A DNA stretch of 64,000 bases, from positions 1 through 64,000 of the forward strand of contig NZ_BCSR01000008.1 of the NCBI RefSeq assembly GCF_001570965.1. Direction: 5' to 3'. The stretch is from Janibacter corallicola NBRC 107790. GTDB lineage: Bacteria; Actinomycetota; Actinomycetes; Actinomycetales; Dermatophilaceae. Positions within the stretch are counted from its first letter, which is position 1. Every line of letters begins with the position of its first letter. The translations under genes were made by a program, and so were the position numbers. A model generated the notes under the pieces. It did not search any database. It saw only the letters and a program-made list of their open reading frames with translations, and had not been told where the DNA came from. Below are positions 13,406-60,681 of this stretch, in pieces.

Positions 13406-13759
13406 GCATCGACGGTAGCGCCTGGGCAAGCCATACCGCTCCCGAAGACCAAGTAACTCGCGGGTACGACACTACGCTCGGGATGTCGAGAACTGACCGA
13501 ACCTTGATCTTCCGACGATCCATCTCGTTGGTTGCGCGCAGCGTGGTGCAGTACCTGCGAGTAACACATGAGTCGCGGGAGGGGGTGCGGCATCGAGCGG
13601 ACGGCGCGGACCGGTGAGCGCGCCCGACTCAGGGAGCGAGGAACGAGCGACCAAGGGCGCGTCCACCGCGCCCGCGCCGGGAGCGCCCATTCGTACCTCG
13701 CTCCTCGCCTCCTTCGAGGCTCGGCCGCGGGCGGCCTTCACACCTCAGGGAGCCGGGGT
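13406..13759. other. 354-bp intergenic region with nested hairpin
   Basis: No credible gene is seen; the open frames here lack family features and a ribosome-binding site. 13440-13580 is less GC-rich than its surroundings and should contain the AraC promoter. 13636-13708 folds: outer arms GCGAGGAACGAG (13636-13647) and CTCGCTCCTCGC (13697-13708) pair with one mismatch, enclosing a perfect inner stem GGGCGCG-TCCAC-CGCGCCC (13655-13673). On the minus strand this lies just after the lepA stop and may terminate lepA; no T-run follows. Confidence 0.6.
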
Positions 13760-15616
13760 CTACTTCTTGGCCTTGTCCCCGGCCGACCCGTCGGAGGAGA
13801 GCGCGGCGATGAAGGCCTCCTGCGGGACCTCGACGGTCCCGATGTTCTTCATCCGCCTCTTGCCCTCCTTCTGCTTCTCCAGGAGCTTGCGCTTGCGGGA
13901 GATGTCACCGCCGTAGCACTTGGCAAGCACGTCCTTGCGGATCGCCCGGATGGTCTCGCGGGCGATGACCCGAGAGCCGACGGCCGCCTGGATGGGGACC
14001 TCGAACTGCTGGCGCGGGATGAGCTCCTTGAGGCGGGTGGCCATCTTCGTGCCGTAGGCGTAGGCCATGTCCTTGTGCACGACGGCACTGAAGGCGTCGA
14101 CCGCGTCGCCCTGCAGCAGGATGTCGACCTTGACCAGGTCGGCGACCTGGTCGCCGGCCTCCTGGTACTCCAGCGAGGCGTAGCCGCGGGTGCGCGACAT
14201 CAGCTGGTCGAAGAAGTCGAAGACGATCTCCGCGAGCGGCAGCGTGTAGCGCATCTCGACGCGGTCCTCGGAGAGGTAGTCCATCCCGTCCATCCGGCCG
14301 CGCTTGCCCTGGCAGAGCTCCATCACCGCGCCGATGTGCTCGCTCGGGGTCAGCAGCGTGGCCTTGACGATCGGCTCGCGGACCTCGTCGACCTTGCCGT
14401 AGGGGAACTCGCTGGGGTTGGTCACCTCGAGCCGGGTCCCGTCGTCCATCGTCACCTGGTAGACGACGTTGGGGTGGGTGGAGATGAGGTCGAGGTTGAA
14501 CTCCCGCTCCAGCCGCTCCCGGATGATCTCCAGGTGGAGCAGGCCGAGGAAGCCGCACCGGAAGCCGAAACCGAGCGCCGCCGAGGTCTCCGGCTCGTAC
14601 ACCAGCGCCGCGTCGTTGAGCTTGAGCTTGTCCAGGGCGTCGCGCAGCACCGGGTAGTCCGAGCCGTCCATCGGGTAGAGCCCGGAGAAGACCATCGGCC
14701 GGGGCTCCTTGTAGCCACCGATCGCCTGCTCCGCCGGCGCCGCCGCGCTCGTGACGGTGTCACCGACCTTGGACTGGCGCACGTCCTTCACGCCGGTGAT
14801 GAGGTAGCCGACCTCGCCGACGCCCAACCCCTTGCTCGGGGTCATGTCCGGTGAGATGACCCCGATCTCGAGGAGCTCGTGGGTCGCCTTCGTCGACATC
14901 ATCACGATCTTCTCGCGGGACTCCAGGTGGCCGTCGACGACCCGCACGTAGGTGACGACACCGCGGTAGTTGTCGTAGACCGAGTCGAAGATCATCGCCC
15001 GTGAGGGGGCGTCCGCCTGCCCCTCGGGCGGCGGGAACTGCGCGACGATCTCGTCGAGCAGGTCCTCGACGCCCTCGCCGGTCTTGCCGCTGACCCGCAG
15101 CACGTCCTCGGGCTCGCAGCCGATGAGGCCGGCCAGCTCATCGGCGTACTTCTCGGGCATCGCCCCGGGCAGGTCGATCTTGTTCAGCACCGGGATGATC
15201 GTCAGCTCGTGCTCCATGGCCAGGTAGAGGTTGGCCAGCGTCTGGGCCTCGATCCCCTGGGCGGCGTCGACGAGCAGGATCGCGCCCTCACAGGCGGCCA
15301 GCGAACGGGAGACCTCGTAGGTGAAGTCCACGTGGCCCGGGGTGTCGATCATGTTCAGCGTGAAGGACTCGTCGAGGACCTCCCACGGCATCCGCACGGC
15401 CTGGGACTTGATCGTGATGCCGCGCTCGCGCTCGATGTCCATCCGGTCCAGGAACTGCGCCCGCATCTTGCGCTCCTCGACGACCCCGGTGATCTGCAGC
15501 ATGCGGTCCGCCAGCGTCGACTTGCCGTGGTCGATGTGGGCGATGATGCAGAAGTTGCGGATCTGGGCCGGCGGGGTCGCGTTGGGCGCGTGGGCCGTGC
15601 TGGCCTGGGGTGACAC
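13760..15616 (-). CDS. lepA: Elongation factor 4 (LepA)
   Basis: A 618-aa translational GTPase EF4/LepA, which back-translocates or helps remodel stalled ribosomes and assists 30S assembly. G1 [16 protein letters not shown] lies near residue 22, G3 DTPGHVDF near 95 and G4 NKIDLPG near 148. EF-G-like domains III and V and the LepA-specific C-terminal domain ([13 protein letters not shown]-like basic stretch) follow. The GTG at 15616 is chosen because codons further upstream run into a hairpin and lack similarity; 618 aa fits the family. Confidence 0.96.
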
Positions 15617-59730: not shown

Positions 59731-59765
59731 GACCCCAGCCTCCCACGGGTACGCGCGCAGGTGGA

Positions 59766-59853
59766 GTCGTCGAGCGGGCTGGGGGGTGGCCGACTCAGGA
59801 CGCAGGCCGCCCCGCGGCCGGAGTCCAAGGCCACCCCCCAGCCCGCCGACGAC
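59766..59853. repeat. 88-nt nested hairpin between the ABC exporter operon and thpR
   Basis: Four stem tiers on one axis: GTCGTCG/CGACGAC (59766-59772 with 59847-59853); an 18-bp perfect stem GCGGGCTGGGGGGTGGCC (59774-59791) with 59829-59846; GACTC/GAGTC (59792-59796 with 59821-59825); and GGCCGC-CCC-GCGGCC (59805-59819). There are 36 pairs in all, with small bulges. No T-run on either strand. It may end the ABC operon, be a structured RNA or leader of thpR, or be a small mobile relic. Confidence 0.85.
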
Positions 59854-59886
59854 GGAACCGACCGGACCAGCCGGACCGGTCGAGAG

Positions 59887-60681
59887 TCACGACCGCAGCA
59901 GCGTCTCGATCCGCCGCGACGCGGCCCAGATGCCGAGGACGCCGAGCGCCACGAGGTAGCCCACGTGCAGCAGCAGTCCCCAGTCGACCTCACCGAGCAT
60001 GAGCCCGCGTTCGAGGGCGACACCGTGGTAGAGCGGCGTGGCCATGACGATCGGCTGGGCCCATCCGGGGTACGTGCCGAGCGGGAAGAAGGTCGCCGAG
60101 AGCAGGAAGAGCGGCTGGATGACGAGCATGATCCAGTCGAAGTCGACCCACGTGCGCATGAAGGTCGTCAGGTACATCCCGACGGCGGAGAAGGCCATCC
60201 CGATGAAGATCGCCGCAGGCACGGCGAGGAGCGACCACCACGACTCGACGACACCGACCACGACCGCCACGAGGTAGAAGACGAGCGCGTAGACCCCGCC
60301 CCTGATGAGGGACCAGACCACCTCCCCGATGGCGATGTCCCGCGGGCCGAGCGGTGTGGCGAGCATCGCGTCGTAGATCTTGGCGTAGCGCAGCTTGAAG
60401 AAGACGTTGAAGGTGGAGTCCATGACCGCGCCGTTCATCGCGGACGCGGCGAGCATCGCCGGGGCGACGAAGGCGGCGTAGCTGACCCGCGAGCCGCCGT
60501 CGGTCGTCACGAACGGCACGAGCGAGCCCACCCCGATGCCGAGCGAGAAGAGGTAGAACACCGGCTCGGCGAAGCCGGTGACGAAGGCCGCCCACTGCCT
60601 CCGGAAGCCGACGGCGTTGCGCTCGACGACCGAGCTCCACATCGCCATCCCGGGGGTCAGCGGTCCGGTGCGCGCGCTCAC
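59887..60681 (-). CDS. ABC-2 type transporter permease (second subunit)
   Basis: A 264-aa membrane protein of the ABC-2 (DrrB/NodJ) type with six transmembrane segments. FAEPVFYLFSLGIGVGSLV near residue 37 and LRYAKIYDAMLATPLGPRDIAIGEV near 100 are the family motifs, and the last helices hold FLLSATFFPLGTYPGW. GTG at 60681 overlaps the stop of the preceding permease gene (GTGA). With the neighbouring permease and ATPase it forms an exporter; two different permease chains suggest a heterodimeric channel. Confidence 0.92.
   Translation of the reverse strand: MSARTGPLTPGMAMWSSVVERNAVGFRRQWAAFVTGFAEPVFYLFSLGIGVGSLVPFVTTDGGSRVSYAAFVAPAMLAASAMNGAVMDSTFNVFFKLRYAKIYDAMLATPLGPRDIAIGEVVWSLIRGGVYALVFYLVAVVVGVVESWWSLLAVPAAIFIGMAFSAVGMYLTTFMRTWVDFDWIMLVIQPLFLLSATFFPLGTYPGWAQPIVMATPLYHGVALERGLMLGEVDWGLLLHVGYLVALGVLGIWAASRRIETLLRS

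What the first reader, a model, noticed from the sequence alone, without database searches (positions are those of the whole stretch)
59766..59853. An 88-nt, four-tier nested hairpin ahead of thpR
36 base pairs on one axis, including an 18-bp perfect stem, are far more than an intrinsic terminator needs, and there is no T-run. It ends 35 bp before the thpR start (an RNA-end processing enzyme) and follows the ABC-2 exporter operon. It could be a structured regulatory RNA, an RNA substrate controlling thpR, or a miniature inverted-repeat element.
Basis: partly seen in the sequence, partly recalled or inferred. Interest (0 to 1): 0.6.

Follow-up and report, generated by a model that had tools for sequence, protein, structure and literature searches.

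The report
Flipping hairpin repeat family of Janibacter
The hairpin is one copy of a previously undescribed family of long imperfect palindromes found only in the bacterium Janibacter; they sit at the ends of genes, keep a fixed small bulge while their stems change freely, and turn over in place between species, so it is probably a repeat-derived end-of-gene hairpin and not a regulator of thpR.

Summary
The hairpin is real: 59766-59853, about 35 base pairs, z = -6.75 against shuffles. It is not specific to thpR. The same asymmetric core, read on the minus strand as GGCCC-UNRG-[inner stem]-CNUGAGUC-GGGCC, recurs about 10 times in this genome, including once more in the window (13600-13680). It occurs in 14 of 16 Janibacter genomes and was not found elsewhere in 180-188 genomes of the family. 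I collected 73 copies. The bulge motif is nearly invariant, while outer and inner stems differ from copy to copy and stay paired. Copies sit at gene 3' ends (45 of 73 between convergent genes) without a U-tract. At orthologous sites species carry either polarity (7 of 17 site groups), and four pairs are clear in-place inversions. Other species have unrelated perfect hairpins at several of the same sites. The thpR site is empty in a relative, and one copy replaced part of a gene. No REP transposase (Y1_Tnp) was found in the genus. Most likely this is a new family of REP/ERIC-like intergenic palindromes serving as tail-less terminator or 3'-end hairpins, with arms homogenised and cores flipped by template switching. 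What recognises the core is unknown; a strand-biased mismatch pattern is unexplained.

The parts
59766..59853 (-). Whole palindromic element of the finding (short form), core read on the minus strand
   Evidence: E 1.3e-15 with model R1, which was built with it
59766..59791 (.). Outer stem, arm nearer thpR; pairs with 59829-59853
59792..59797 (-). Conserved core, bulge side: TGAGTC on the minus strand (GACTCA on plus), nearly invariant in 73 copies
59798..59826 (-). Inner stem (short form): GGAC / 3x3 loop / GGCCGC-GGG-GCGGCC
59826..59831 (-). Conserved core, opposite side: CCTTGG on the minus strand (consensus CCUNRG)
59829..59853 (.). Outer stem, arm nearer the ABC-2 permease gene
13600..13680 (-). 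Second copy in the window (mini inner arm TCGCTCGTTCCTCGCTCC), between two minus-strand genes, about 80 nt after the stop of 13760-15616
59887..60648 (-). ABC-2 type permease gene whose stop is about 33 nt before the hairpin

Best explanation
The hairpin is one copy of a Janibacter-specific family of dispersed imperfect palindromes (about 80-140 bp). SHOWN: many copies per genome; an almost invariant asymmetric core (CCUNRG opposite CNUGAGUC) between two stems that differ from copy to copy yet pair; location at gene 3' ends; polarity that flips between species at the same site; at least one recent gain that destroyed a gene start; unrelated perfect hairpins in its place in other species. INFERRED: at its site the element works as a tail-less hairpin terminator or 3'-end stabiliser/barrier, here for the ABC-2 operon, and between convergent genes for both genes at once. 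For that only the stem matters, so polarity is free. Stems stay complementary and cores flip because the polymerase switches template between the two arms during replication. The core would be erased by the same process unless selected, so it is probably a recognition site, most simply for whatever spreads the family.
For: Copies in the own genome and in 14 of 16 genus genomes, with pattern matches far above the reversed-pattern control (covariance model). Outer 5' arms score 16.7 with their own 3' arm against 9.4 with arms of other copies (inner 12.3 against 7.2). Core nearly invariant in 73 copies. Context: 45 convergent, 15 same-direction sense, 5 same-direction antisense, 4 divergent (one orthologous site), 3 inside predicted genes, 1 undetermined, against 10 convergent of 62 gene pairs in the window. 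Distance to the upstream stop mostly 15-60 nt. Inversion in place: elements 87-92% identical by core polarity but 66-72% in the gene frame, with orthologous flanks. Unrelated perfect hairpins at the same sites in G006, G009, G010, G012. About 90% of M. tuberculosis terminators are reported without a plain U trail, and similar findings exist for Streptomyces (PMC8355165). Template switching homogenises inverted-repeat arms and inverts spacers (PMC8604942).
Against: No RNA data: termination itself is not shown. In the gene-sense strand the outer stems carry A.C mismatches rather than G.U (31 against 6 distinct isolated events, two-sided binomial p about 4e-5 if independent), the opposite of what selection on a sense-strand RNA hairpin predicts. 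Location between convergent genes is also what tolerance of insertions alone would give. No mobilising enzyme was found.
Confidence: 0.6

Rival explanations
1. A purely selfish miniature element (MITE/REP-like) with no role at gene ends; it accumulates between convergent genes only because insertions there do no harm.
For: Dispersed, genus-restricted, variable copy number; a recent copy replaced the start of a rhodanese-like gene in G013 that is intact in G006, G009 and G010; core conserved although stems change.
Against: Other species keep a different perfect hairpin at several of the same sites, which suggests that a hairpin is wanted there. No Y1 transposase in any of 16 genomes. No target duplication apparent at the one clear gain.
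Confidence: 0.27
2. A structured RNA made from the GACTCA strand (plus strand in the window), for example an antisense or independent small RNA.
For: Mismatches in the outer stem are G.U on that strand; pairing covaries.
Against: Polarity relative to genes flips between species at the same site, same-direction sites lean the other way (15 against 5 copies), the inner stem shows no such bias (8 against 6), and there is no Rfam match above chance hairpins.
Confidence: 0.07
3. A cis-regulatory RNA or ThpR substrate controlling thpR.
For: It lies 35 nt before the thpR start.
Against: The same gene pair in G014 has only a short spacer and no hairpin; thpR in G004, G006 and G013 has other neighbours and no copy; other copies adjoin unrelated genes.
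Confidence: 0.02
4. An ordinary one-off terminator hairpin; the shared core is coincidence.
For: Position after the ABC-2 operon.
Against: The core recurs in dozens of places, with model E-values down to 1e-16.
Confidence: 0.01

Closest known systems
REP elements of the GTAG/CGTC superfamilies (RAYT-associated), PMC3733652
   Same: Dispersed intergenic palindromes with a fixed asymmetric tag, pairs of opposite orientation (G005), many at gene 3' ends
   Different: Stems of 20-30 bp plus an inner stem instead of 5-13 bp; the conserved motif is an internal bulge, not a foot tetranucleotide; up to about 18 copies per genome seen; no Y1/RAYT transposase in the genus; Actinobacteria are not among the phyla listed in the passages read
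ERIC, BOX, RUP and other small mobile palindromic repeats (PMC2229807, PMC3049150; seen as search results, not read in full; details from own knowledge)
   Same: Imperfect palindromes of about 100-130 bp between genes, non-autonomous
   Different: Different sequence and host; here stems turn over while an internal bulge stays, and elements invert in place
Tail-less (I-shaped) intrinsic terminators of Actinobacteria (PMC8355165)
   Same: Long G+C-rich hairpin after the stop codon, no U trail
   Different: Carry a conserved sequence core and form a repeat family; termination not shown
Quasipalindrome template-switch mutation (PMC8604942)
   Same: Arm homogenisation and spacer inversion explain paired but changing stems and the flips
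   Different: A mutational process, not an element; it does not explain why the asymmetric core is kept

Membership tests
REP elements (GTAG/CGTC, RAYT-mobilised) | GTAG or CGTC tetranucleotide at the foot of a short stem | tested here: not met
   Conserved motif is internal (TGAGTC bulge); stems 20-30 bp
REP elements (GTAG/CGTC, RAYT-mobilised) | Y1 (RAYT) transposase in the genome | tested here: not met
   PF01797 absent from all 16 genus genomes, positive in 5 of 14 control genomes
Miniature inverted-repeat element (MITE) | Short, non-coding, dispersed, with inverted-repeat arms | tested here: met
Miniature inverted-repeat element (MITE) | Target-site duplication and a parent transposon with the same ends | tested here: inconclusive
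   One clear gain (L217) replaced about 140 bp and shows no apparent duplication; a parent transposon was not searched for
Intrinsic (Rho-independent) terminator | Stable hairpin a short way after a stop codon | tested here: met
Intrinsic (Rho-independent) terminator | U-tract after the hairpin | tested here: not met
   3' flanks are mostly TCC..., none T-rich; reported as dispensable in many Actinobacteria (PMC8355165)
Intrinsic (Rho-independent) terminator | Ends transcripts | not testable with these tools
   Needs Term-seq or a reporter
Rfam structured RNA | Match to a curated family above its gathering score | tested here: not met
   (only sub-threshold microRNA-hairpin matches)
ERIC element | Enterobacterial consensus of about 126 bp | not tested
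   Family is restricted to Janibacter in these searches

The most novel reading that the evidence does not exclude
The conserved bulge is the recognition site of an unknown, dedicated enzyme that acts on one strand of the element folded as a hairpin (the GACTCA strand, the one whose mismatches are G.T), making this a transposition or hairpin-processing system unrelated to RAYT/Y1 that plants and flips gene-end hairpins genome-wide.
Probability: 0.15. Interest if true: 0.75.

Novelty: new variant of a known kind. Interest (0 to 1): 0.45.

Why it matters
It is a compact natural experiment on how gene-end hairpins arise and turn over: stems, polarity and even the kind of hairpin change between species at a fixed gene end while a short bulge is kept. 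It is a caution that covarying stems can come from a repeat homogenised at the DNA level and need not prove a functional RNA. It also points to an unidentified factor that reads the core. If that factor is found, it would explain how such repeats spread without a known transposase.

Tried and rejected
Rfam search of the locus and of five long- and short-form loci: nothing but sub-threshold microRNA-like hairpins. Degenerate 18-base core scan of all GTDB contigs: mostly chance hits at that specificity; of the 30 loci rechecked with the model only the Janibacter sp. Soil728 hit is a true member, and a weak Frankiales hit lies in a coding region. Gapped pattern and covariance model over 180-188 genomes of the family: only background outside the genus. 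REP/RAYT hypothesis: no Y1_Tnp. thpR-linked regulation: rejected by the empty site in G014. Sense-strand structured RNA: argued against by A.C over G.U and by flips. A preference for the sense polarity (15 against 5 copies) shrinks to about 9 against 4 independent sites by my own grouping and was not claimed. Literature search for Janibacter palindromes found nothing relevant.

Full report
OBSERVATION. The hairpin at 59766-59853 is real. It has 7 + 18 bp of outer stem, a 2-nt by 6-nt asymmetric loop, 4 bp, a 3x3 loop, 6 bp and a 3-nt loop. The region 59740-59880 folds at -96.8 kcal/mol against -69.3 +/- 4.1 for shuffles (z -6.75). It lies between two genes of the minus strand, about 33 nt after the stop of an ABC-2 permease gene and 35 nt before thpR. 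No T-run follows on either strand.

IT IS A REPEAT. BLAST in the own genome found partial copies elsewhere. All share a core which on the minus strand of the window reads GCC-CTTGG-ACTACGGCCGC...GCGGCCTACGTCC-TGAGTC-GGGC, while the outer stems have other sequences. A covariance model from seven copies (R1) found members in 13 of 16 genomes of the genus. An independent gapped pattern (CCGACTCA, 50-80 bases, CNNAGGRCC) gave mostly palindromic matches, far above the reversed-pattern control; with the short forms, 14 genomes hold members, and the two matches in G002 are not palindromic. The genus is Janibacter: genome G010 has the 812,780-base contig of Janibacter sp. Soil728, with the same element. 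Outside the genus, 180-188 genomes of the family gave only background. With a structural detector I collected 73 copies from fetched loci; a few more were seen later. About ten are in the window's genome, one of them a second copy in the window at 13600-13680.

ANATOMY. Consensus, in the orientation of the minus strand of the window: outer stem (20-30 bp, often ending GCGGGCGAAGG / CCTTCGCCCGC), then CCC-U-N-R-G, an inner stem, C-N-U-G-A-G-U-C, GGG and the outer stem. Two main core classes exist: UUGG with CCUGAGUC and UAAG with CAUGAGUC. Inner arms come as mini (23-24 nt between anchors), short (28-32) and long (60-71) forms. The swap test shows real covariation: outer arms pair with their own partner at mean score 16.7 and with partners from other copies at 9.4; inner arms 12.3 against 7.2. 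The pairs next to the core and the bulge itself hardly vary.

WHERE THE COPIES ARE. With a small codon-usage gene finder trained on the window, 45 of 73 copies are between convergent genes, 15 follow a gene of the same direction (sense), 5 are antisense in a same-direction gap, 4 are at one orthologous divergent site, 3 are inside predicted genes and 1 is undetermined. In the window itself 10 of 62 gene pairs are convergent. The start of the stem is mostly 15-60 nt after a stop codon. The 3' flank is TCC or similar, not a U-tract. Tail-less terminators are reported as common in Actinobacteria (PMC8355165).

EVOLUTION. Grouping copies by flanking proteins gave 17 sites held by two or more copies; in 7 of them different species have the core in opposite polarity although the flanking genes are orthologous. 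In four pairs the element is 87-92% identical when aligned by its own polarity and only 66-72% in the gene frame (L201/L211, L207/L253, L237/L255, L227/L236), so it was inverted in place. At other shared sites the inner arm belongs to another class. Three kinds of gain, loss or replacement were seen. (a) The thpR site: G014 has the same ABC-2 permease and thpR genes with a short spacer and no hairpin. (b) The L217 site: G013 has an element plus a little unrelated sequence in place of about 140 bp of the start of a rhodanese-like gene that is intact in G006, G010 and G009, so the element is the derived state. (c) At the L223, L225, L242 and L251 sites some species have instead an unrelated long hairpin, mostly perfect. 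Sites of G013 and G006 that share an element show ordinary vertical inheritance.

STRAND TEST. Isolated mismatches inside the outer stem are A.C on the gene-sense strand far more often than G.U: 31 against 6 distinct events (90 against 20 by raw count). On the other strand, the GACTCA strand, these are G.U/G.T pairs. The inner stem shows no such bias (6 against 8). A hairpin selected as sense RNA should show the reverse. Since polarity to genes flips, the bias seems tied to the element itself. Possible causes are a structure formed by the GACTCA strand, or cytosine deamination of that strand when it is single-stranded. I leave this unexplained.

MECHANISM. The simplest account joins two parts. 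First (inferred), a hairpin at the gene end is useful as a terminator or 3'-end barrier, in both directions at convergent sites; only the stem matters, which explains the exchange for unrelated hairpins and the free polarity. Second (inferred, known process), template switching between the arms during replication homogenises arms and inverts what lies between them (PMC8604942), which explains paired but changing stems and the flips. This process would also remove the asymmetry of the core, yet the core is kept in nearly all copies, so something selects it (with the caveat that copies were collected by that core). Because perfect hairpins without the core do at the same sites, the core is more likely a recognition site for the spread or upkeep of the family than for termination. 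REP transposases are excluded as far as Pfam Y1_Tnp can see.

COMPARISON. It works like REP/ERIC-type intergenic palindromes and like tail-less terminators. It is not a member of the GTAG/CGTC REP superfamilies (no tag, no RAYT, longer stems; PMC3733652), and no Rfam family matches. I rate it a new variant of a known kind.

LIMITS. There are no expression data. Gene calls outside the window are automatic. The copy list is not exhaustive and was collected through the core motif, so its apparent invariance is partly by selection; patterns miss variants such as TGAGCC. Copies are related, so counts of mismatches and contexts are not fully independent; distinct-event and site-level counts are given where they matter.

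Noticed in passing
window 13600-13680: Second copy of the family in the window, with an inner arm (TCGCTCGTTCCTCGCTCC) that is a direct repeat more than a palindrome.
   Followed up: partly
L232 (G005:C9:93696-93950): Two elements of opposite polarity side by side between one gene pair; relatives keep only one of the two (L228 one polarity; L212, L262, L271 the other).
   Followed up: partly
L217 (G013:C1:2374176-2374254): Element replaces the start of a rhodanese-like gene; the gene is intact in G006, G009 and G010.
   Followed up: yes
L302, L301, L298, L294 (orthologous sites in G010, G012, G006): Unrelated, mostly perfect long hairpins at gene-end sites that hold the element in other species, e.g. 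GCCCAAGAAGGTGCATTGCCATAGGGCAATGCACCTTCTTGGGC.
   Followed up: partly
73 collected elements (outer stems): Excess of A.C over G.U mismatches on the TGAGTC strand in the outer but not the inner stem (31 against 6 distinct events).
   Followed up: partly
L247 (G010:C1:890564-890637 and downstream): The right half of the element is repeated in tandem downstream of it, as if by unequal duplication.
   Followed up: no
G001 and G002: The only two genus genomes without recognisable copies; G001 is a single contig.
   Followed up: no
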